Origin: a virus
Strand: one strand, 5' to 3'
Virus record (IMG/VR): IMGVR_UViG_3300021093_000075
Location: 1 to 61,926 of that record
DNA length: 61,926 nucleotides
This document shows, one piece after another, positions 44,467 through 54,646 of the stretch. The notes below the pieces were generated by a model. It was not told the origin of the DNA. It saw nothing but the letters and a program-made list of their open reading frames with translations, and did no database searches. A program made the position numbers and the translations under genes. Every line of letters begins with the position of its first letter. Positions within the stretch are counted from its first letter, which is position 1.

Positions 44467-44868
44467 ATGACCCGACGAATTGTCTACCATGGAACTGTCG
44501 AGTCTGATCCACCCCACCTACAAGGGTTTCCTTTCCATGCCGGTACTCGCCGAGCTGCCCAGGAGCGCATTGACGACGAAATTTCCCATGGAATCTCCGT
44601 AGACGAGCCCAAAAGGGTTACGGCCTCGTATCACGCCTACGAAATCAGTGATGATGCCCCAATGTCAAAACGAACATGGCAAGATCCAATGTTCCATCAG
44701 GATGCAAAAAAAGCAGTCCCGGAGCACAAAGAGAACAGGATTTACCCATATACCAATGAGCGCGAAGATCGCGGGTCTACTTCCTATGTAATTCCGTCGT
44801 CATTTGTTGGTAGGCACGTAAAACACCTTGGTGTGCAGTTTAAGGAATTTTACGACCTAGAGCCATAA
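44467..44868 (+). CDS. YHGT/FHAGT-family protein (copy 1)
   Basis: The 133-residue protein begins with R-R-I-V-Y-H-G-T and continues P-P-H-L, F-H-A-G-T, A-Q-E-R-I, Y-H-A-Y-E-I, D-R-G-S-T-S-Y-V-I-P and H-L-G-V-Q-F. The same series is found in three other products here (49606-50130, 50962-51501, 52520-53206). The Y-H-G-T start and strand pattern suggest an ADP-ribosyltransferase-like fold, but the catalytic Glu cannot be placed. It is the first gene of the effector island. Confidence 0.75.
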   Translation: MTRRIVYHGTVESDPPHLQGFPFHAGTRRAAQERIDDEISHGISVDEPKRVTASYHAYEISDDAPMSKRTWQDPMFHQDAKKAVPEHKENRIYPYTNEREDRGSTSYVIPSSFVGRHVKHLGVQFKEFYDLEP

Positions 44869-44882: not shown

Positions 44883-45368
44883 GTGTCAGCGTCAGATCAT
44901 CTTTCTCCAGATCAATTACGCGCCCACGTCAAAGCTCATTTAAATAAATGGTCTGAAACGTACCACACACCCGAATGCGCCGATGGGTTGTGCTGGCATG
45001 CAACAAGGGCGTATATTCATAAAGCAGTAGAAGACGGGCATGAGGCCCATTACAAGACTTTTGATCTAGATCATGACGAGCCAGTACCTCCCAACCCTGG
45101 TTATAGGCACGGCACTCACACCGTTGCCGGTGTGCAAACATCCCGCGGGCCTTACATAGTTGACCTGACGCATCGTCAGTTTGACGCAAAATCCCCATAC
45201 CCAGTGATAGAGCCGGAACACCGGTTTATGAGTAGAGACATAATGAAACCATTCAAGTATGTCGAAGAATATGACATTGATACAGGCGAAGGCTATTGGG
45301 AAGGCTTCGATGAATTCCCACACCCCTCCGACGGCTCTTCCCGAGATCTGCGTGAGGAACCGTTTTAG
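44883..45368 (+). CDS. Tagged papain-like protein (copy 1)
   Basis: The 161-residue protein starts with the island's N-terminal signature (S-A-S-D-H-L-S-P-D-Q-L). It then has C37 in G-L-C-W-H-A, H79 in H-T-V-A-G-V, and D94 in Y-I-V-D-L-T-H-R-Q-F-D. The ordered Cys, His and Asp with a strand-G-x-x-(I/V)-V-D layout match papain-like or transglutaminase-like folds. Three island proteins share it. It could be a protease, deamidase or deacylase. GTG start, leaderless. Confidence 0.7.
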   Translation: MSASDHLSPDQLRAHVKAHLNKWSETYHTPECADGLCWHATRAYIHKAVEDGHEAHYKTFDLDHDEPVPPNPGYRHGTHTVAGVQTSRGPYIVDLTHRQFDAKSPYPVIEPEHRFMSRDIMKPFKYVEEYDIDTGEGYWEGFDEFPHPSDGSSRDLREEPF

Positions 45369-45373
45369 TACTT

Positions 45374-45853
45374 ATGTCGGCTTTAGACCACCTTTCCCCG
45401 GCCCAACTACGTGCTCATGTGCAAAAACACTTAGAGGAACGTCGTTCAACCGCCGATTGGCCCGAAGAATATGACACTCCAGAGTGTGCTGAGGGCGAAT
45501 GCGGCGTAGCGTCGGAAGAATACGCCAGAAGGGCAATAAAAGACGGTCATCAGACTGATTTACATAGTTATTTTATCCCAGAAGACGCACCTAGAAATCT
45601 CAGTACACATTTTTTTAATACGCACACTGTTGCAAACGTACAAACGTCGCGTGGGCCGTACATAGTTGACCTAACTCATCGTCAATTTGATGCAAACGCT
45701 CCGTACCCAATCGTAGAACCACAACACGAGTTTCTGAAAAGAGAGTCAATGCAGCCATTTACCACCTACCAAGTTCACAAAAAGGTTAGCGGTGGGTGGA
45801 AAGACGTTTGGTCGTCAAAATCTGACGATCTTCCAATACAAGGTAGGGAGTAA
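45374..45853 (+). CDS. Tagged papain-like protein (copy 2)
   Basis: The 159-residue paralogue of the upstream gene has the tag S-A-L-D-H-L-S-P-A-Q-L and putative catalytic C43 (G-E-C-G-V-A), H84 (H-T-V-A-N-V) and D99 (Y-I-V-D-L-T-H-R-Q-F-D). The regions between these residues are diverged, so the pair is not a recent duplication. The stop overlaps the next ATG (TAATG). Confidence 0.7.
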   Translation: MSALDHLSPAQLRAHVQKHLEERRSTADWPEEYDTPECAEGECGVASEEYARRAIKDGHQTDLHSYFIPEDAPRNLSTHFFNTHTVANVQTSRGPYIVDLTHRQFDANAPYPIVEPQHEFLKRESMQPFTTYQVHKKVSGGWKDVWSSKSDDLPIQGRE

Positions 45854-46233
45854 TGGCAGCATCAGATCACCTAAACGAGGTCTTGTTCCATGGAACAGGG
45901 TATAAATTTAAAAAAGGTGATGTCATTTTGCCCGCGTCGCAAATCGACGTGAAGCGCAATTGGGGAGCCAAATCCAAGAACGACCCGAATTACGCCTACG
46001 CGACGAACGACATGGACCAGGCCAAATACTTCGCGCACATCGCCTCCCTGTTCGGCGGCGGCAGGCATCCGCGTGTCTATCAAGTCGAACCAGTGAACCC
46101 TGATACCGCTGGGTGGAGGGTGAAAAATTTCCCCGGAGGCAGTGGCGGCGGGTCGCGGTCGTTCAGAGAACACGCCTCTTCTGAGGGTTACCGAGTGCTA
46201 AAACAAGTCTGGAAGAGGCCAAAAAAGACATGA
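45853..46233 (+). CDS. Tagged Arr-like ADP-ribosyltransferase (copy 1)
   Basis: The 126-residue protein has the tag (A-A-S-D-H-L-N) fused directly to L-F-H13-G-T-G-Y-K-F-K-K-G-D-V-I, then Y-A-Y-A-T-N-D and V-Y-Q-V-E-P-V, ending in G-Y-R-V-L-K. This is the layout of rifampin ADP-ribosyltransferases (Arr), small NAD+-dependent enzymes with a His-Tyr-Asp active site. The middle of the gene is clearly more G+C-rich than its neighbours, suggesting domain exchange. GGGAG lies upstream. Confidence 0.75.
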   Translation: MAASDHLNEVLFHGTGYKFKKGDVILPASQIDVKRNWGAKSKNDPNYAYATNDMDQAKYFAHIASLFGGGRHPRVYQVEPVNPDTAGWRVKNFPGGSGGGSRSFREHASSEGYRVLKQVWKRPKKT

Positions 46234-46592
46234 GCGCTTCAGAACACCTCAATCCGGATCAACTTCGCCTGTTTATGCAGGCTAAGGAGTTGATGAACGT
46301 ACATACGTTAGAAGCGACTCAATGGGGCAACCATTATCGCACTATGAACGATGATTCTTCTTTGTATCTTAGTAAAGTGAGAGAATCCGTTTCCGGGTAT
46401 GAGCACGATACGTACAATACGGCAAAAAAAGGACAAGAAAACCTGTATGACAGCATAAAAAAAGAGGGGGTAAAGTCCCCTGTGACGTTGTCAGATAGAG
46501 CAGGATTACTGAATATTGAAAACGGTCATCACCGTATTGCAGCAGCCAATGCCATTAACGAGGATATGTATATACCGGTACGTTATGAGTAA
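46230..46592 (+). CDS. Tagged ParB/Srx-like protein
   Basis: The 120-residue protein starts S-A-S-E-H-L-N-P-D-Q-L and has a C-terminal ParB-like domain: L-Y-D-S-I-K-K-E-G-V, P-V-T-L-S, I-E-N-G-H-H-R-I-A-A-A and I-P-V. ParB/Srx-fold domains bind nucleotides or cut DNA in some families. It overlaps both neighbours. Confidence 0.7.
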   Translation: MSASEHLNPDQLRLFMQAKELMNVHTLEATQWGNHYRTMNDDSSLYLSKVRESVSGYEHDTYNTAKKGQENLYDSIKKEGVKSPVTLSDRAGLLNIENGHHRIAAANAINEDMYIPVRYE

Positions 46593-46962
46593 CTTACATC
46601 CTGAGCAGTTTCAGGATCTTAACGAGTTCGTTAATAATTTAAAGATCTATCACGGAACCCCAGTAACCCATTTACAACCTGGGGATATTATAAAGTCACC
46701 TGACCCACGACCTGATTCTTGGGATAGAGGAAAAGTGTTTGGCACAGACAACCCCGCATGGGCGCGTATGTACGCTAATAAGAACACTCGTCCTTCCTAC
46801 ACGGCAACCGAAACCGATGGTGCGGTTTATGAAGTAGAGCCAGTTGGGGCGCTAGATCGATTTACCGATGAACAGGTGAACAAAGCATTTAAAGACATGG
46901 GAGTTCCCTACACTGCCGAATACGCCGCTGATGCGTGGCGGGTTCTTGGCAAATACGAGTAG
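46585..46962 (+). CDS. Tagged Arr-like ADP-ribosyltransferase (copy 2)
   Basis: The 125-residue protein has a shorter tag (L-H-P-E-Q-F), then I-Y-H23-G-T-P, L-Q-P-G-D-I-I, V-F-G-T-D-N-P-A-W-A, V-Y-E-V-E-P-V and W-R-V-L-G. These match the order of Arr motifs. The ATG overlaps the end of the preceding gene by 8 bp. Confidence 0.75.
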   Translation: MSNLHPEQFQDLNEFVNNLKIYHGTPVTHLQPGDIIKSPDPRPDSWDRGKVFGTDNPAWARMYANKNTRPSYTATETDGAVYEVEPVGALDRFTDEQVNKAFKDMGVPYTAEYAADAWRVLGKYE

Positions 46963-46968
46963 TATCAT
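46963..46968 (+). promoter_or_regulatory. -10 box for leaderless transcript
   Basis: TATCAT directly follows the upstream stop and ends 6 nt before the ATG at 46975. Confidence 0.55.
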
Positions 46969-46974
46969 TAACAC

Positions 46975-47424
46975 ATGGCTTCTTGGGAACATATGAGCAA
47001 AGAACAGTTCTATGGGCCGTATTTGTATCATGGAAGTTCTAAAAAATTTCCCGTAGGTGACATTATCAAGACACCTGTAGAAATCAATCCGGATGACGCA
47101 ACGTACGCAACTGAAGACATTGTGTACGCAGGCGGTTTTGGCCACATACACAAAGTCGTGCCCACGGATTGGGAAGAAGCTGAACCTTTTGAACCGGGTA
47201 ACGACCCAGAAGAACTACAGGCTCATCCAGAACCACCCCATAGGCATGGTGATGTTTATTGGAATTTTGCTTCAAATAAAGGTTTTAGGGTAATTGGGCA
47301 TTCAAACTTTGTAACACCCACAGATTTGAGTTTTAACCCAGACCCAGACTCTCCTACGGGCGGAGAATGGACTTCTGGTGGTAAGCGCTGGCATCGACCT
47401 GTTCGCGGCAGCGGGCAGGATTAG
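46975..47424 (+). CDS. Tagged Arr-like ADP-ribosyltransferase (copy 3)
   Basis: The 149-residue protein starts A-S-W-E-H-M-S-K-E-Q-F, then L-Y-H19-G-S-S-K-K-F-P-V-G-D-I-I, Y-A-T-E-D, H-I-H-K-V-V-P and G-F-R-V-I-G. It has a longer C-terminal tail with acidic and Pro-rich stretches. It has its own leaderless-type promoter. Confidence 0.7.
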   Translation: MASWEHMSKEQFYGPYLYHGSSKKFPVGDIIKTPVEINPDDATYATEDIVYAGGFGHIHKVVPTDWEEAEPFEPGNDPEELQAHPEPPHRHGDVYWNFASNKGFRVIGHSNFVTPTDLSFNPDPDSPTGGEWTSGGKRWHRPVRGSGQD

Positions 47425-47452
47425 TTCTATTATTGCTCCCAACGGTGGCTGA

Positions 47453-47458
47453 TACCAT
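47453..47458 (+). promoter_or_regulatory. -10 box for leaderless transcript
   Basis: TACCAT ends 6 nt before the ATG at 47465; there is no ribosome-binding site. Confidence 0.5.
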
Positions 47459-47464
47459 TAAGAT

Positions 47465-47854
47465 ATGACGTTGAGCCAAGACCAGTTTGACGGTTTTGAA
47501 TACAGAGGTGTAAGAATCAGTAACATTCGCAGCGGTGTACACGGTAAGAACACTAAGAATGTTACAAGTCGAGTCGTACCAATCATGTTTGAGTACCAAA
47601 GCGGTGAGGTAAAAGAAGGAGCACAAATTAGCGCTAGTAAAGAAAAAGCAAAGCGTTTTCTAGACAATGCTCTGCATGAAAAGTTCGGTGGTAGGGCAGA
47701 AGAAGGAAAACTGCGTATGAGTCGAATCAACTACCGTGCAATGGGTGAACAGGCAGAACACAAATCCGTTGAGGAGTTAACCTCTCCGGAGGAGTACGTT
47801 CGTAAATACAAGAACTGGATAGCCCAGGGCGGCTTTGACCCAGGATTAGAGTAA
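47465..47854 (+). CDS. Island protein of unknown fold with partial tag
   Basis: The 129-residue protein begins T-L-S-Q-D-Q-F, which retains the L-x-x-x-Q-F core of the tag. The rest is basic, with a beta-type first half and a helical second half, and is not recognised. It converges with the minus-strand operon that ends at 47890. Confidence 0.65.
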   Translation: MTLSQDQFDGFEYRGVRISNIRSGVHGKNTKNVTSRVVPIMFEYQSGEVKEGAQISASKEKAKRFLDNALHEKFGGRAEEGKLRMSRINYRAMGEQAEHKSVEELTSPEEYVRKYKNWIAQGGFDPGLE

Positions 47855-47889
47855 ATAAAAAATTTCCGGTGAAGGGACTATTCCGTTTC

Positions 47890-48246
47890 CTACCTACGAC
47901 GAGGTCCCGTGTTGCGGGGTGGAAGACGTTTACTAACACTACGTGCCCATGCGTCACCTTCGTCGGTGCGGTCCATTGAGTGTTTAGGCGGTTGTACGCC
48001 CCTAGTTGTTTTTGCCATTTCGTGGGCGTAATTCCACATACCGGTAGCAATTCCCTGTCTACGGTAGTTTGCTTCAACAAATATGTTTGAAATGGTTTGA
48101 CCATGAGGAAACCATTCCAACTCGCCTACATAGTCCGAACCTTCCTCAGCAACGACTCTGTGGCGTTGTTCTTTTCCAATTGGGGATCGGGCATTTCCCT
48201 TTTCAAACCTGAATTGGACACCATTGATGTTATCTCTAGCAGCCAT
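47890..48246 (-). CDS. Tagged GNAT-like acetyltransferase (copy 1)
   Basis: The 118-residue protein starts A-A-R-D-N-I-N-G-V-Q-F and contains the GNAT motif A region: I-F-V-E-A-N-Y-R-R-Q-G-I-A-T-G-M-W. GNAT proteins transfer acetyl groups from acetyl-CoA to amines. The domain is minimal. It is the last gene of the eight-gene minus-strand block and starts on the previous stop (TAATG). Confidence 0.72.
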   Translation of the reverse strand: MAARDNINGVQFRFEKGNARSPIGKEQRHRVVAEEGSDYVGELEWFPHGQTISNIFVEANYRRQGIATGMWNYAHEMAKTTRGVQPPKHSMDRTDEGDAWARSVSKRLPPRNTGPRRR

Positions 48247-48530
48247 TACTCACCTTTTTCTTTACTTGCAGAATCAAGTAATTGGTCTTTTTTATATTTT
48301 GGAAGGGTATCCCACCTAGATTTCCAGTTGTTTTTCCACTCCTGAACGCTTGGGTGGTCAATTGCGTCTTCCCAATCATCCCAATCTGCTGCACTGTGCT
48401 TAGCAATAAGCCCTATGCGCTCACTTTTAGGAGTTTCAGCAGGCCCTGTCCAGCGTCCCTCTGGAACATAACCCCATTTAAAGGTTTTTCCGTAGTGTTG
48501 GTCCCAATTCAAGTGGTCTTTAGCTGCCAT
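48246..48530 (-). CDS. Tagged protein of unknown fold
   Basis: The 94-residue protein begins A-A-K-D-H-L-N-W-D-Q-H. The body is rich in Trp, Lys and Asp and looks helical; no family is recognised. ATG at 48530 overlaps the upstream stop. Confidence 0.65.
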   Translation of the reverse strand: MAAKDHLNWDQHYGKTFKWGYVPEGRWTGPAETPKSERIGLIAKHSAADWDDWEDAIDHPSVQEWKNNWKSRWDTLPKYKKDQLLDSASKEKGE

Positions 48531-48925
48531 TACGTGTAAAGGTCCTTTACCGTAGTATCCCAATATGGCTTACCCAGCCTGTTTACTTTTATTCCACGAT
48601 CAGTGAACCGTTTTTCATAGTCTTGGATTGGCTCCACGATGGGCATTTGTGCAGTTGGGTCAAATTGAAGGTAGGTAAAGTCAACAATATGTGGGCCTTC
48701 TGAAGTAGGCACGTGATTTACGGCGTGTGGGATGTCTTCGTCAAACTCGTATGACTGTACAAGAGCGTCAGAAACGCCGCCATGTGCGGTGAAATGCCCC
48801 GAATAATCGTAACAACAGCCCGTATCACGCTTTTCTGGGTCTTTGTAGTTACGGAAGTACTTGTCACCATGTGCAGTTGCAATATTACGCAATTGGTCAG
48901 GGTTTAAATGGTCAGAAGCAGCCAT
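48530..48925 (-). CDS. Tagged papain-like protein (copy 3)
   Basis: The 131-residue protein starts A-A-S-D-H-L-N-P-D-Q-L and has C37-C38, H71 (V-N-H-V-P-T-S) and D82 (H-I-V-D-F-T-Y-L-Q-F-D), in the same order and spacing as the two plus-strand papain-like copies. It overlaps both neighbours by one base. Confidence 0.7.
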   Translation of the reverse strand: MAASDHLNPDQLRNIATAHGDKYFRNYKDPEKRDTGCCYDYSGHFTAHGGVSDALVQSYEFDEDIPHAVNHVPTSEGPHIVDFTYLQFDPTAQMPIVEPIQDYEKRFTDRGIKVNRLGKPYWDTTVKDLYT

Positions 48926-49224
48926 TATTCAACCACAAATCCATGTCGACTGGTCATTACAGTTCGCGCTGGGTAGCGCTCTAGGTCTTCTGGGTCGTCT
49001 GGGTCTGCAAACGTTTCGTAAGCATCATCATGCATGTATGTTTCAACGCTGGTGTCGTGCAGTAAGGGGCGAACTGAGTAGGGGGTTCCCCAGTTGTTGG
49101 CAAAGTCATAATCTGGAGTGGCATACACTTCACCGCCATATCGAGGGTCGATGACTTCTCCGGGCTTAAACGACTGTTCTGTTCCGTGGAACAACTCCGG
49201 GTGTAGGTGATCTTTAGCTGCCAT
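48925..49224 (-). CDS. Tagged Arr-like ADP-ribosyltransferase (copy 4)
   Basis: The 99-residue protein starts A-A-K-D-H-L-H-P-E-L-F with the tag merging into L-F-H13-G-T-E, then K-P-G-E-V-I, V-Y-A-T-P-D-Y and V-R-P-L. It is the shortest Arr-like copy, ending T-S-R-H-G-F-V-V. ATG at 49224 is chosen over an upstream in-frame codon because it places the tag at the N-terminus. Confidence 0.7.
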   Translation of the reverse strand: MAAKDHLHPELFHGTEQSFKPGEVIDPRYGGEVYATPDYDFANNWGTPYSVRPLLHDTSVETYMHDDAYETFADPDDPEDLERYPARTVMTSRHGFVVE

Positions 49225-49603
49225 TATAAAAAATTCCTTTTCGTTCCATCGCCTCAGCAAACTCGTACCCTTCTTCTGTTTCACTGTACGCACGTTGCGG
49301 CGGAGGAATTATTCCCTTAGATGCCTTAGCTATTTTTTGACCATGTAGAACCATGCCAGTCGCAACTCCTCTACGCTGATGTTTTGGATCAACTTGGATA
49401 TTAAACATAGGACCATCCATGTGGTAAAGAATTTGCCCAACAACCTCACCGGTAGGCTTATACACAGCGTCTATTTTGTGATCGTACAGCGTACGTCCTT
49501 CTTCAAGTTCGTCAGCAAAATAATCTCCGTCTAACCACTCTCGTTGTGGGCCGGTGGGGCGATATCTAAACTGATATTTATTAAGATGATTTTTGGCAGC
49601 CAT
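49214..49603 (-). CDS. Tagged GNAT-like acetyltransferase (copy 2)
   Basis: The 129-residue protein begins A-A-K-N-H-L-N-K-Y-Q-F and has G-E-V-V-G-Q-I-L-Y, then F-N-I-Q-V-D-P-K-H-Q-R-R-G-V-A-T, the acetyl-CoA-binding motif. It overlaps the next gene by 11 bp. Confidence 0.72.
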   Translation of the reverse strand: MAAKNHLNKYQFRYRPTGPQREWLDGDYFADELEEGRTLYDHKIDAVYKPTGEVVGQILYHMDGPMFNIQVDPKHQRRGVATGMVLHGQKIAKASKGIIPPPQRAYSETEEGYEFAEAMERKGIFYNGS

Positions 49604-49605
49604 TG

Positions 49606-50130
49606 TTAATTGCTTACTTCTTTATATATGTCGTATAGCTTTTCTTTTTCTCTAAAAGTCATTGGGGCAACATGGCTATAACCTGAAGATACAAAACTTT
49701 TATGCTCTACATCAGTGATGTATTGTTTTGCTTTATTTATTACGTTGTCAAGATTGTTGGAAAATTGTGGCCCTAAATGACGGACGTAATCTCCAACAAA
49801 TTTTGTTGGAATAACCAATGAAGTTGACCCAGGATCCTCAACGTTGTTCCAATATCTGTGGATTTTTCGGATATTTCCTTCCGGAACAGGGTTGCCGTCA
49901 GTTGGGTCACCAAACATTCTTTTTGACATTGGGGCAGATTTTTGAATTTCATATGCGTGTATTTGTGCGGAACCAGGAACATACTCATCATCCCAAGTTC
50001 CGCTGTCTTCCATTTTGTGCAAAATTCTGTCTAAAGCAGATTCTTTAGTTCCAGCATGAAACAATTGATTCTCAGAAACCATATGCGGTGCTTTGCCCGC
50101 CAACGTACCGTGATAAACAATCCTACGCAT
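49606..50130 (-). CDS. YHGT/FHAGT-family protein (copy 2)
   Basis: The 174-residue paralogue of the 44467 product has R-R-I-V-Y-H-G-T, A-P-H, L-F-H-A-G-T, A-L-D-R-I, I-H-A-Y-E-I, E-D-P-G-S-T-S-L-V-I-P and H-L-G-P-Q-F. A 50-residue C-terminal helical extension is new. Like the other members it lacks the N-terminal tag. Confidence 0.75.
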   Translation of the reverse strand: MRRIVYHGTLAGKAPHMVSENQLFHAGTKESALDRILHKMEDSGTWDDEYVPGSAQIHAYEIQKSAPMSKRMFGDPTDGNPVPEGNIRKIHRYWNNVEDPGSTSLVIPTKFVGDYVRHLGPQFSNNLDNVINKAKQYITDVEHKSFVSSGYSHVAPMTFREKEKLYDIYKEVSN

Positions 50131-50132
50131 TG

Positions 50133-50513
50133 TTAATCTTCTTCGTAATTGGGTTCGTCGTTATCCCAGTCGTAATCGTTTGGGCCGGGGCGTGACGACA
50201 ATCCCCTATTATAAATTTCCCAAGCCCAATCATCGCCTTCTTTAGTCCTAAAACGAGAAGGAATTGGTTCTGGGTAGTGGAAAGGCTGATCCTTGTGCGC
50301 TTGCCCTGCACGTTTCCACATTTCTGTTGCCAAACCTTGTCTTCGATATTCTGGGTTAACTGATACATGCTCAAGTTGTTTTTCGCTCCACGCCATGTTT
50401 CCAACTTTTAATCCAGTAATAGCATCAATTGCGGTTATTTCCGCCGAACCGTATTTTTCATAAAAGGGGTAATAATTAAACTGGATAGCATTAAGGGAAT
50501 TTTTGGCAGCCAT
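50133..50513 (-). CDS. Tagged GNAT-like acetyltransferase (copy 3)
   Basis: The 126-residue protein begins A-A-K-N-S-L-N-A-I-Q-F and has V-S-V-N-P-E-Y-R-R-Q-G-L-A-T-E-M-W plus a C-terminal E-G-D-D-W-A-W-E-I-Y-N-R-G-L-S shared with copy 4. Confidence 0.75.
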   Translation of the reverse strand: MAAKNSLNAIQFNYYPFYEKYGSAEITAIDAITGLKVGNMAWSEKQLEHVSVNPEYRRQGLATEMWKRAGQAHKDQPFHYPEPIPSRFRTKEGDDWAWEIYNRGLSSRPGPNDYDWDNDEPNYEED

Positions 50514-50932
50514 TAGTAATCCTCGTCGTACGTGTTGTCGGGAGGTTTAGCCGACAGTCCACGATCATACATACCCCACGCCCACTCGTCACCTTCGGGT
50601 GTTCGATAATCCGAGTGTTTTATTTTTGGGTAATGCCACGGTTGTTGGTTATGTAATTGTTCAGCTAATTTCCACATTTCAGTGGCAATGCCTTTTCGTT
50701 GGTGTTTATCCGCTACGTCTATATCAATAATTCTTCCCTCGTATGTGTCTATGAGCTCTGGAGAAGTTTTAGGATTAGTCCAACTTAATTTACCAACATA
50801 ATTGTTTTTGTGATCTGTTACTTCAATGAAAGGGTTGTTTGGATAAAAATCGGCGTGGGGTTCTTGTTTGGGGCCATACATTACTTTGTAGGCCCCAAAC
50901 AGGGCAGAATTAAGATTATCTTTGGCAGCCAT
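50513..50932 (-). CDS. Tagged GNAT-like acetyltransferase (copy 4)
   Basis: The 139-residue protein begins A-A-K-D-N-L-N-S-A-L-F and has I-D-V-A-D-K-H-Q-R-K-G-I-A-T-E-M-W, then E-G-D-E-W-A-W-G-M-Y-D-R-G-L-S. It is the first gene of the minus-strand block and is preceded by a leaderless-type -10. Confidence 0.75.
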   Translation of the reverse strand: MAAKDNLNSALFGAYKVMYGPKQEPHADFYPNNPFIEVTDHKNNYVGKLSWTNPKTSPELIDTYEGRIIDIDVADKHQRKGIATEMWKLAEQLHNQQPWHYPKIKHSDYRTPEGDEWAWGMYDRGLSAKPPDNTYDEDY

Positions 50933-50938
50933 TGGTAT

Positions 50939-50955
50939 ATTTTATCTTGTATTAT
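50939..50955. promoter_or_regulatory. Divergent pair of leaderless -10 boxes
   Basis: On the minus strand TAAAAT (50944-50939) ends 6 nt before the ATG at 50932. On the plus strand TATTAT (50950-50955) ends 6 nt before the ATG at 50962. The whole intergenic space is 29 bp, so the two polymerases would compete. Confidence 0.6.
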
Positions 50956-50961
50956 TAGTTA

Positions 50962-51501
50962 ATGTTTGATGACGACCAACACCTGTATAAACCCAATAGG
51001 CGGGTTTATCATGGCACCTGGGGAAACGTGGCTCCTCACAACGCCAGCCAACCAGACTTCCACGCTGGTACTTACCAATCCGCCCTAGACCGGTTAAAAA
51101 CCGAGTCTTTCTTTGATTATTACGACACACAAACCGAATCATTTGATGAGAATGCTGAACCAAGCAACAGAGCCACAATTCATGCCTATGAATTAAGTGA
51201 AAAGCCTTCTCATTTAATTTACGACGACCCCCATTTTGGAACTTGGCAAGAATCCCACGTTCCAAAACGGTACAGAGAACGTGTGCCTATGTTAAACAAA
51301 TTACAATCTAAAATGGTTGATCCATTAATTGTTACTGACCATGCTTCACGATGGGGCCAAGGTCCAATACGCAGATATACAAATCTTTATGAAGACCCCG
51401 GTAGTATTTCTTATTTAATACCCGTAAATGCTGTTAGTCAGCGGCGTGTGCGGTATTTAGGTCCACAGTTCCTAAGTCGTGAAGATTTAGAAGATATGTA
51501 A
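50962..51501 (+). CDS. YHGT/FHAGT-family protein (copy 3)
   Basis: The 179-residue protein has R-R-V-Y-H-G-T, A-P-H, F-H-A-G-T, A-L-D-R-L, I-H-A-Y-E-L, Y-E-D-P-G-S-I-S-Y-L-I-P and Y-L-G-P-Q-F. A larger central insert separates the conserved blocks. Leaderless promoter. Confidence 0.75.
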   Translation: MFDDDQHLYKPNRRVYHGTWGNVAPHNASQPDFHAGTYQSALDRLKTESFFDYYDTQTESFDENAEPSNRATIHAYELSEKPSHLIYDDPHFGTWQESHVPKRYRERVPMLNKLQSKMVDPLIVTDHASRWGQGPIRRYTNLYEDPGSISYLIPVNAVSQRRVRYLGPQFLSREDLEDM

Positions 51502-51504
51502 ACA

Positions 51505-52119
51505 GTGGCTCATCACGTTTGTAGTATCCCCCGCCCAATGTATGGGTACGTCAAAAACGAGTTTCTTTACGACATGCAGGAAGGGTTTGGGCAAACCACC
51601 CCAGCACTGTTGTATGGGCTTTCAGCCCTACCTAATCGAGCTTGGGGTATTTCAGCCCTTTTGTCAAACGGGGCGTTAATCCAACATTTACCTGTTCATG
51701 CTTTCTTAAAGAACCCAACAAGCCCACATAACCATCAGTTAGGTGAACTCCAGGTTTGGTCATGTTACGGACAGGATTTTGGTGTTGAAGAATTTAGTGC
51801 CTTGTCGGAATTGTCCGTAAGGGCGTATCTAAAAGGATCGTGGGAATCCGCCCACTATTGGTTTACAGCCGCCCCATACGACGATGTATATTCACGAACT
51901 CCAGACCAACACAAGCATTTTAATTTTATCTGGCTTGACTGCGGGCATTTAGCAGCATTGCCGGGAAACCGATTGCTTGTACACGACCCATCATTTACGG
52001 TAGACATGCCCAAGTGGGGAGATCGCCCTAGATACAAAGTCAACACTCAATACTGGTATCCAGAAGCTTTTGACCAAAAGCCACAATTTGATTCAACTAT
52101 TGACGATCAAACTGCCTAG
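51505..52119 (+). CDS. Island protein of unknown function
   Basis: The 204-residue protein is not recognised. It is rich in aromatic and His residues (M-Y-G-Y-V-K-N, W-S-C-Y-G-Q-D-F-G, F-I-W-L-D-C-G-H-L). A GTG start lies 3 nt after the preceding stop. Its end overlaps the end of the converging gene by 4 bp. Confidence 0.7.
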   Translation: MAHHVCSIPRPMYGYVKNEFLYDMQEGFGQTTPALLYGLSALPNRAWGISALLSNGALIQHLPVHAFLKNPTSPHNHQLGELQVWSCYGQDFGVEEFSALSELSVRAYLKGSWESAHYWFTAAPYDDVYSRTPDQHKHFNFIWLDCGHLAALPGNRLLVHDPSFTVDMPKWGDRPRYKVNTQYWYPEAFDQKPQFDSTIDDQTA

Positions 52120-52517
52120 GGGAATGGTTCTATCTTTAAAATATTATGAGGTGCAATTTTCCCAACGTTCAAAACTGAACCAGTTTGTTTTAATGAGTTT
52201 TTCCAATCAACTCCGCTTCTAAGTTGTGTTTCATCAAAATCTCTAGGCAAACCTGTATGAACTGGCTCTTCAAACGAGTTGTAATCAGGAGTTAAATTGC
52301 GAGGATTTGCTCTTATTGTAATGATTGACGTTGGTGTTTCTAATCCACCATAATCAGATTGCCTAAGCGCGTAGTGTTCTGCAAGTTCGTAATCGTTTGT
52401 TAGATATGAATTAGGGCCTAAACCTTGAGCCTTTATATATTCAAGATTTTTATCAGTGGTGGCATGAAACAAATGTAAATGAAATTGCCCATCGCTAATG
52501 TGGTCTCTAGCAGCCAT
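52116..52517 (-). CDS. Tagged ART-like protein
   Basis: The 133-residue protein starts A-A-R-D-H-I-S-D-G-Q-F, then L-F-H18-A-T-T-D, I-K-A-Q-G-L, Y-L-T-N-D-Y-E-L-A-E-H-Y-A and I-I-T-I-R. The H-A-T and L-T-x-D pattern matches an ADP-ribosyltransferase-type fold different from the Arr-like copies. It is second in a two-gene minus-strand unit. Confidence 0.68.
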   Translation of the reverse strand: MAARDHISDGQFHLHLFHATTDKNLEYIKAQGLGPNSYLTNDYELAEHYALRQSDYGGLETPTSIITIRANPRNLTPDYNSFEEPVHTGLPRDFDETQLRSGVDWKNSLKQTGSVLNVGKIAPHNILKIEPFP

Positions 52518-52519
52518 AA

Positions 52520-53206
52520 CTAACGTTTATAGAATGGAAACAGCTCATCACCAGACGGTTTGCCAGATGTTAATGGATACCCATCATCTGGAACTCCCAT
52601 TTCTCCTTTTACGTACTCGTGAACGTCTGAAAGCTCTCCACCATCGTACGGAATTCTAAATTGCTGGCTGCTTAAATGCTTAACATATCCTTCGTTAACG
52701 GCGTTCTTTGAGATAACAAACGAAGTAGAGCCGGGATCTTCCCATCGATTGACATATTTGTGAACAAATGGTTTTCCATCCTTTGACCGCTCTGGAACTT
52801 GTAAGTCCTCAACGTAGTCACTAGGCCAATCTTGGTCTTCAGAATACCCTTGAGTGTGTGGGTCTTCAAACGTAAGCATTGTGGGTCGACGCAGTATTTG
52901 ATACGTGTGAAGGTTGAATGAGGGGTCTGGGCCCTCACCATGCGTAAACAGGCTTTCATGCGCAGCCTGTTTTTTGTTGGTATCTGTTATTTCTGGAAAA
53001 TGGTCGTCGGTATAGTATTCAGACATTTGGAGATTTGTTTGATACGCGGCTCGATCAAGGGCAGCATTTAGTGTTCCGGCATGGAATGATGGTCCACCAG
53101 CGCCTTCTGAGAGATGCGGAGCTTTATGTTCAGGTGCATTTGCGTGGTAAACAATAAGCGGCTTACCACGCCATCGAGGAGAATCATATTTCTTTTTAAT
53201 AGCCAC
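52520..53206 (-). CDS. YHGT/FHAGT-family protein (copy 4)
   Basis: The 228-residue protein is the largest family member: L-I-V-Y-H-A-N-A (His kept, Gly-Thr changed), A-P-H-L, F-H-A-G-T, A-L-D-R-A, L-H-T-Y-Q-I, E-D-P-G-S-T-S-F-V-I and V-K-H-L. A C-terminal extension follows. GTG start after a leaderless-type -10. Confidence 0.72.
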   Translation of the reverse strand: MAIKKKYDSPRWRGKPLIVYHANAPEHKAPHLSEGAGGPSFHAGTLNAALDRAAYQTNLQMSEYYTDDHFPEITDTNKKQAAHESLFTHGEGPDPSFNLHTYQILRRPTMLTFEDPHTQGYSEDQDWPSDYVEDLQVPERSKDGKPFVHKYVNRWEDPGSTSFVISKNAVNEGYVKHLSSQQFRIPYDGGELSDVHEYVKGEMGVPDDGYPLTSGKPSGDELFPFYKR

Positions 53207-53248: not shown

Positions 53249-54646
53249 ATGCCCCAACTTGGTTCACAGTTTGAAAATACCTACACTGTAGAGCCTGGGA
53301 AGACCGTGTCTAAGGTGGTCAAGGAAAAAAAAGACCTTGAGTCTGGTTTAACCCAAATAGAAAAACGGCAGGCTGAGCATCAGGGAAAGCCGTTTAGGGA
53401 CTTTGATTATGTCAAAGAGGAAGTTGAAACCCCAGATACAGTAACGGATTACGATGTTACAGAACATCCGCAAGGTATGTTGTTTGCTCCGGAAACCGGT
53501 ACATTTAGGCCTGGGGATCCGCTTTACCCAAGAGAACAGCGTTTGGCTGATGTTAAAAAGAATTACCCAGTAAGTATTAAAGGGTCAACTCCTAAATCAA
53601 AAATTGAAGAAGTTCAAAACATGATTGCTAATACTAGTTATTCTAAACAAGAGTTAGAACAGGGAGCGGCTGATATTAGAATTGAAACAACACGAGGATA
53701 CGCAGGTTCGTACGACTCGTCTGTTAACCGTATTTACTTGCGAGATGATGCATCTTTATCAGCAGACTTGGAAAGCAGTATCTTTTCTCACGAACTGGGA
53801 CATGCGTTTGATTCAAAACTTAGGATAACAAGGGGACCAAAGCGAGAACGTGAGCAAGACGTAATGATGGAGAAAAAGGGAAGGTTTACTATTTCTCCAA
53901 CTGAAGAGGGCATAGCTGACGGTATGGGTGACCGCTACGGCCATGTTACAACCGAAACCCCTGAGTGGTACAAACCTGAAGTCACCACTGAACCAACCAT
54001 GTCTGAAAACGAACGTCGATTGCACCCTTCGCACCCTGATCGGCGGATTGACATGAAATCTTACGGGTACAGTACACAAAATGATGCTTGGTCAAATAAA
54101 CAAGAGCAGGCTTTGTACGCTGCCACTCGACTACATGTGGGTATGCATGGGCCAAAAGGTATCGCTGACATGCCGGATATGAATGAACTTGTACACAAGC
54201 ACTTACATGAAGAAGGAACAAAATGGGTAAAAAACAAAAGAGAAGAAAATGAACGCGAGTTTTGGGGTGATCGAGGTTTTGATAGGCCAGATGCCCCTAA
54301 AAAAGTGCATGACTACGATTATTTAAAAACCCCAACATTCAAAAACCAAGCACGGGCTTTGTTTTTGGGTAAGCTTTTACATGAAAATACAGCCGTACAT
54401 GAAAGCATGCATAGTCTTGGTTTTGGGGAAATTGCAACACATGCAGTAGATACATACAAGTATCACGAGGCTGTGCACCAACAAAAACAGACTCAGAACC
54501 AATTGAAACTGTGGGATGAGCCTGATCCCAAGTTGACTCCCCCTAAAAAACTAACGCGTCAGCAAATGCGTAGAGATGATTACAGACCAAAAAAGAAAAA
54601 TGAGTTTGATCGCCTTGATAGGCTGTTTGGTGGCTGGAAACAATGA
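53249..54646 (+). CDS. HExxH zinc metalloprotease-like protein
   Basis: The 465-residue protein has S-H181-E182-L-G-H185-A-F-D, a complete zincin active site on a helix. E-E-G-I-A-D-G (about residues 219-225) may supply the third ligand, as in gluzincins with a downstream Glu. The first ~110 residues are polar and probably disordered, and the last ~60 are basic. A second H-E-S-M-H (near residue 390) has the same HExxH spacing and may be another site or chance. Likely cytoplasmic. Leaderless promoter; last gene of the island. Confidence 0.75.
   Translation: MPQLGSQFENTYTVEPGKTVSKVVKEKKDLESGLTQIEKRQAEHQGKPFRDFDYVKEEVETPDTVTDYDVTEHPQGMLFAPETGTFRPGDPLYPREQRLADVKKNYPVSIKGSTPKSKIEEVQNMIANTSYSKQELEQGAADIRIETTRGYAGSYDSSVNRIYLRDDASLSADLESSIFSHELGHAFDSKLRITRGPKREREQDVMMEKKGRFTISPTEEGIADGMGDRYGHVTTETPEWYKPEVTTEPTMSENERRLHPSHPDRRIDMKSYGYSTQNDAWSNKQEQALYAATRLHVGMHGPKGIADMPDMNELVHKHLHEEGTKWVKNKREENEREFWGDRGFDRPDAPKKVHDYDYLKTPTFKNQARALFLGKLLHENTAVHESMHSLGFGEIATHAVDTYKYHEAVHQQKQTQNQLKLWDEPDPKLTPPKKLTRQQMRRDDYRPKKKNEFDRLDRLFGGWKQ

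What the first reader, a model, noticed from the sequence alone, without database searches (positions are those of the whole stretch)
44883..52517. Shared N-terminal tag on 15 unrelated island proteins
Fifteen products begin with variants of one 10-12 residue signature (for example A-A-S-D-H-L-N-P-D-Q-L, A-A-K-D-H-L-N-x-x-Q, A-A-R-D-H-I-S-D-G-Q-F). It is joined directly to ART, GNAT, papain-like, ParB-like or unknown domains. A short conserved N-terminus on different folds is hard to explain by common descent of the domains. It suggests a functional tag: virion packaging and injection, docking on one partner, or stability control. T4 internal proteins carry a capsid-targeting sequence, which is a precedent for the first option. 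The YHGT/FHAGT members and the protease lack the tag.
Basis: partly seen in the sequence, partly recalled or inferred. Interest (0 to 1): 0.93.

Follow-up and report, generated by a model that had tools for sequence, protein, structure and literature searches.

The report
Shared address tag on phage effectors
A group of uncultured bacterial viruses puts the same roughly 12-residue "address label" on many unrelated small enzymes, most likely so that all of them are loaded into the virus particle and injected into the host, and nothing like it is recorded for this virus group.

Summary
Thirteen island genes begin with the full tag (consensus M-[A/S]-A-x-[D/E]-[H/N]-L-[S/N]-x-x-Q-[F/L]). Two have a clipped form and the neighbouring metalloprotease has a short form (LGxQF). 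The four "untagged" YHGT proteins carry the same core near their C-terminus. So 20 of 21 island proteins have one copy; 1 of 81 other window genes has one.

In IMG/VR the tag marks 95 non-redundant proteins (ART, GNAT, ParB-like, papain-like and other bodies) on 39 contigs. Every contig with a detectable head gene belongs to one lineage: actinomyoviruses related to Streptomyces phage BRock. Five cultured Borockvirus isolates and 257 Gb of bacterial and archaeal genomes lack it. Selection acts on amino acids: codons vary freely and bodies are unrelated.

At least 23 tagged genes lie inside or beside head operons (between gp143 and gp142, beside portal, beside major capsid), with different bodies at one site. 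This favours a capsid-packaging address, analogous in role to T4's capsid-targeting sequence but not shown to be homologous. Tagged genes overall are not enriched near head genes, and no virion proteome exists. Packaging is the best explanation, at about 0.6.

The parts
44467..44868 (+). YHGT/GSISY-family protein; no N-tag, core motif KHLGVQF near C-terminus
44883..45368 (+). Papain-like (Cys/His/Asp) protein, full tag MSASDHLSPDQL
45374..45853 (+). Papain-like protein, full tag MSALDHLSPAQL
45853..46233 (+). ART (Arr-ms PF12120, E 2e-7, domain starts at residue 11), full tag MAASDHLNEVLF
46230..46592 (+). ParB-like (GHHR) protein, full tag MSASEHLNPDQL
46585..46962 (+). ART-like (YHGT) protein, clipped tag MSNLHPEQF (start here rather than 46516 is my choice)
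46975..47424 (+). ART-like protein, tag MASWEHMSKEQF
47465..47854 (+). Unknown body, clipped tag MTLSQDQF
47890..48246 (-). GNAT, full tag MAARDNINGVQF
48246..48530 (-). Unknown body, full tag MAAKDHLNWDQH
48530..48925 (-). Papain-like protein, full tag MAASDHLNPDQL
48925..49224 (-). ART-like protein, full tag MAAKDHLHPELF
49214..49603 (-). GNAT, full tag MAAKNHLNKYQF
49606..50130 (-). YHGT/GSISY family; no N-tag, C-terminal core RHLGPQF
50133..50513 (-). GNAT (AlphaFold2 pLDDT 88.6), full tag MAAKNSLNAIQF
50513..50932 (-). GNAT, full tag MAAKDNLNSALF
50962..51501 (+). YHGT/GSISY family; no N-tag, C-terminal core RYLGPQF
52116..52517 (-). ART-like (FHAT) protein, full tag MAARDHISDGQF
52520..53206 (-). 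YHGT/GSISY family; no N-tag, C-terminal core KHLSSQQF
53249..54646 (+). Putative metallopeptidase (DUF6782, E 1e-4, below cut-off), short tag MPQLGSQF

Best explanation
The motif is a lineage-specific packaging address. Its core (hydrophobic residue, small or N-cap residue, one or two variable residues, Q, F/L) looks like a helix-capping turn. It is displayed once per protein, usually at the N-terminus, sometimes near the C-terminus. It would bind one shared head-assembly component (scaffold, capsid, portal or the gp143/gp142 neck region) while the prohead is built. Unrelated small effectors (ADP-ribosyltransferases, acetyltransferases, ParB-like and papain-like enzymes, a metallopeptidase) would then be enclosed in the head and injected with the DNA to act early on the host. 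Shown: the tag, its reality, lineage restriction, amino-acid-level conservation, interchangeable bodies and head-operon sites. Inferred: the binding partner, packaging, injection and the effector targets.
For: Strictly start-site tag on unrelated bodies. Between-class tag identity is 0.45-0.60, while bodies of different classes do not align by BLAST, except 2 ART-GNAT hits. All six Leu codons but one of the CTN/TTR set and both Ser codon boxes are used, so selection is on the protein. All head-bearing tagged contigs are BRock-like. Twenty-three tagged genes lie within 1.2 kb of same-strand head genes, often with 4-bp overlaps or gaps of a few bases. A tagged gene lies between gp143 and gp142 in 4 of 13 long contigs against 0.2 expected, and in 10 of 20 overall against 3.4, with ParB, ART, GNAT and unknown bodies at that one site. 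Published work predicts virion packaging of ART, GNAT and ParB domains in polyvalent proteins (PMC5512222) and of ARTs coded near head genes in myoviruses (PMC9503650). T4's 10-residue CTS shows that such an address works (PMC9026906).
Against: Over all tagged genes there is no enrichment near head genes (p 0.42 and 0.26); only contigs with 1-2 tags show it (p 0.002). Large islands, including this window's, lie outside the head module. Operon-first genes of the window island have host-like -10 elements about six bases before the start codon, which do not suggest late-only expression. No binding partner unique to tag carriers was found. There are no virion proteome data.
Confidence: 0.6

Rival explanations
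1. The tag docks all these proteins on one non-virion partner, for example a phage-made complex or a host machine (RNA polymerase, ribosome, nucleoid), during infection, so that the enzymes act together at one place.
For: One motif per protein, N- or C-terminal, fits any docking peptide. Most tagged genes are not beside head genes. Window promoters look host-type.
Against: It does not predict insertion of tagged genes between portal, scaffold, capsid and neck genes with tight coupling, nor confinement to one virion lineage.
Confidence: 0.22
2. The tag is part of each domain's fold or controls stability or translation of the start region.
For: In the GNAT model the second half of the tag is a short turn leading into strand 1. 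In ARTs the tag's F can be the F of FHGT.
Against: The Arr domain profile starts after the tag. Linkers of several residues separate tag and ART fold in some members. The same YHGT domain occurs with and without the N-tag and, in L203, with neither motif. Codons are unconstrained, which argues against an RNA element.
Confidence: 0.1
3. The shared 5' end is a recombination anchor that lets the phage swap gene bodies; the peptide itself has no function.
For: Different bodies occupy the same genomic site.
Against: The DNA of the tag is diverged, with free synonymous variation and no shared nucleotide block. The core also occurs at the C-terminus of YHGT proteins.
Confidence: 0.04

Closest known systems
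T4 capsid-targeting sequence (CTS) of internal proteins IPI-IPIII
   Same: A roughly 10-residue N-terminal address on otherwise divergent proteins; suggested in the literature as a way to load various proteins into T4-like heads, which also carry the ART Alt (PMC9026906).
   Different: No S77 or S78 prohead protease was detected (the S77 search had no positive control). The phage lineage and motif differ. The core can also sit at the C-terminus. Up to about 20 proteins per phage carry it here.
Polyvalent proteins of phages and conjugative elements
   Same: Overlapping domain repertoire: ART, GNAT, ParB-like, peptidases; a YHGT/GSISY domain occurs inside a 1,127-aa multidomain protein (L203).
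   Different: Here each domain is a separate small protein with its own tag rather than a fusion.
Streptomyces phage BRock and relatives (Borockvirus)
   Same: Homologous terminase, portal, scaffold, major capsid, neck, sheath and baseplate genes.
   Different: The five isolates lack the tag. gp143 and gp142 are 3-4 bp apart there, the site that carries tagged genes in uncultured relatives.

Membership tests
T4-type capsid-targeting sequence | Short N-terminal peptide shared by otherwise divergent proteins | tested here: met
T4-type capsid-targeting sequence | Cleavage by a homologous prohead protease (gp21, S77) | tested here: inconclusive
   No PF03420 or PF04586 match in 15 records; the S77 search rang in no control genome, so absence is not proven
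T4-type capsid-targeting sequence | Tagged proteins are in the virion and are ejected | not testable with these tools
   Needs virion proteomics
Polyvalent proteins | Several effector domains fused in one polypeptide | tested here: not met
   Tagged proteins are 53-225 aa and apparently single-domain
Polyvalent proteins | Characteristic domain repertoire (ART, GNAT, ParB, peptidase) | tested here: met
BRock-like actinomyoviruses (lineage of the carrier phages) | Homologous capsid, portal, terminase and sheath | tested here: met
   MCP 57-73% identity to BRock in related contigs. The window itself holds only baseplate and tail-type homologs of BRock, but shares its island with L001, whose contig (G001) has the full head module

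The most novel reading that the evidence does not exclude
A position-independent packaging address, unrelated to T4's, turns the BRock-like virion into a modular injector: about 20 separate effectors in one phage each carry one copy of a Q-F turn motif, N- or C-terminal, and bodies are swapped freely at fixed sites in the head operon. It would be an unfused counterpart of the polyvalent protein.
Probability: 0.4. Interest if true: 0.85.

Novelty: new variant of a known kind. Interest (0 to 1): 0.74.

Why it matters
If the tag is a packaging address, it identifies dozens of otherwise unannotated phage proteins as injected effectors by sequence alone. It would give a second, independent system beside T4 for asking how small proteins are sorted into a capsid, and a short portable peptide for loading chosen proteins into virions of soil-bacterial phages.

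Tried and rejected
tblastn of whole tagged proteins and of 22-26 aa consensus pieces against 50,697 phage records found nothing but Arr-2-type integron genes, which lack the tag. A scan without the ATG requirement returned zero because its fixed Ser codons excluded AGY; it says nothing. A global test of closeness to head genes was not significant and is reported as counter-evidence. A search for a receptor gene present in all tag carriers and absent from BRock found none. Leaderless promoters upstream of tagged genes were tested across contigs and are not general. PADLOC found no defence family. A structure prediction for the papain-like protein could not be run. The eight genome-collection hits of the tag pattern are not convincing tagged genes: most are short or cut, and three lie far inside long reading frames.

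Full report
What is there. The window is an IMG/VR virus record with a T4-type baseplate wedge protein at its left end, best matched by Streptomyces phage BRock, and two WhiB-like genes, which point to an actinobacterial host. Between 44.4 and 54.7 kb lie 21 small genes on both strands. Thirteen begin with the full tag, two with a clipped form, one (the putative metallopeptidase at 53249) with a short form MPQLGSQF. Four YHGT-type proteins have no N-terminal tag but carry L-[GS]-x(-x)-Q-F near the C-terminus. Only the phrog_3704 protein at 51505 lacks the motif. Of 81 other genes in the window, one matches the core at its N-terminus.

Is it more than chance. A PSSM built from tags was run over 20 contigs. 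Start-codon sites gave dozens of hits above 20 bits. Among 845,000 non-start positions only seven exceeded 14 bits and one exceeded 20, the latter being the start region of an ART ORF. The PSSM was trained on tags found in these same contigs, so the start-site counts are partly by construction; the internal positions are the fair control. Codons in the tag vary freely: four Ala codons, CTN and TTR for Leu, TCN and AGY for Ser. Selection therefore acts on the peptide, not on DNA or RNA.

How widely does it occur. Pattern scans of 2.9 million viral contigs brought in tagged genes that collapse to 95 non-redundant proteins on 39 contigs. Motif classification gives ART-like about 31, ParB-like 18, GNAT 15-16, papain-like 7, YHGT/GSISY 3 or 4, two zinc-ribbon-like and a remainder of unknowns; these classes rest on sequence motifs plus Pfam or PHROG hits on examples. 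The stricter pattern in 257 Gb of bacterial and archaeal genomes gave eight stretches, none a convincing tagged gene. Every contig with a detectable head gene is BRock-like, with MCP 57-73% identical to BRock; smaller contigs without head genes share many genes with tagged BRock-like contigs. Five cultured Borockviruses have no tag by profile search. A short form, M-x-A-x-D-H-L-G-x-Q-F, is also real: ten further stretches, most on sizeable ORFs, several beside head genes.

Portability. The YHGT/GSISY family offers a natural test. Members without an N-tag have the core at the C-terminus; members with an N-tag or an N-terminal variant do not. A FastTree tree places N-type members in at least three separate positions, one (L199) nested among C-type members. 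The sample is about 22 sequences with shared ancestry, several N-terminal variants were recognised by eye, and the 'HLG' part is shared with the fold, so I treat this as suggestive. The same domain inside a 1,127-aa multidomain protein of another phage (L203) has neither motif, so the motif is not needed for the fold.

Structure. AlphaFold2 on the GNAT at 50133-50513 (16 sequences) gives pLDDT 88.6. Residues 1-4 are disordered, residues 7-9 form one helical turn, and Q11-F12 enter strand 1. Foldseek's best matches are GNATs, at E about 0.01 but with high probability. The sequence L-[S/N]-P-x-Q-F reads as a helix-capping box with a hydrophobic staple (my inference). Arr-type ART profiles begin at residue 11-12, right after the tag, and some ARTs have a linker between tag and fold.

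Genome context. Tagged genes occur in two settings: islands of up to 13 full-tag genes away from head genes, as here, and single or paired genes inside or beside the head operon. Twenty-three tagged genes lie within 1.2 kb of same-strand head genes: between gp143 and gp142, directly upstream of portal, between portal and scaffold, between major capsid and gp146, near terminase. Gaps are often a few bases, with 4-bp overlaps in some. In the isolates gp143 and gp142 are 3-4 bp apart. Permuting tags among ORFs within contigs, a tagged gene lies between gp143 and gp142 in 4 of 13 long contigs against 0.2 expected and in 10 of 20 overall against 3.4, with none of 10,000 permutations reaching either. 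The broad test of closeness to any head gene is not significant, except for contigs with one or two tags (p 0.002). The location evidence is thus specific to certain junctions. The functions of BRock gp142 and gp143 are unknown; gp148 is annotated as scaffold in relatives.

Interpretation. The domains are those predicted to be packaged and injected as polyvalent proteins (PMC5512222), and ARTs coded near head genes of myoviruses are thought to be packaged (PMC9503650). T4 shows that ten N-terminal residues can direct a protein into the head (PMC9026906). A shared address for loading unrelated effectors into the head explains the tag, its single copy per protein, its confinement to one virion lineage and the head-operon sites. 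A docking role on a non-virion partner remains possible. I searched the held papers with seven queries and found no description of this motif; that is not proof of novelty.

Limits. No expression, binding or proteomic data. Gene starts are mechanical. Contigs are metagenomic fragments and hosts are inferred. The S77 protease search had no positive control. Host identity beyond Actinobacteria is unknown.

Noticed in passing
window 44467, 44883, 50932(-), 50962, 53206(-), 53249: Genes that begin island operons have a TANNNT hexamer about six bases before the start codon and no Shine-Dalgarno, as in leaderless actinobacterial mRNAs; several head genes of the related contig have AGGAG-type sites. 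Not general in other contigs.
   Followed up: partly
window 50932-50962: Two divergent start codons are only 29 bp apart, so both promoters must overlap each other and probably the opposing gene.
   Followed up: no
window 51505-52119: The only island protein without the motif matches phrog_3704, labelled ferredoxin (E 5e-32), and looks far better conserved in L001 (4519-5133) than its neighbours.
   Followed up: no
L203:19-3399: A 1,127-aa multidomain protein of another phage contains the YHGT/GSISY domain, linking this family to polyvalent proteins.
   Followed up: partly
G005 (record of L012) 36.4-41.3 kb: The portal homology is split into several blocks by up to about 1.5 kb of extra DNA, suggesting introns, inteins or homing elements.
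   Followed up: no
L042:9545(-) and L044:3437(+): Near-identical tagged proteins of only 53-55 aa with a highly charged, apparently disordered body lie upstream of the portal gene.
   Followed up: no
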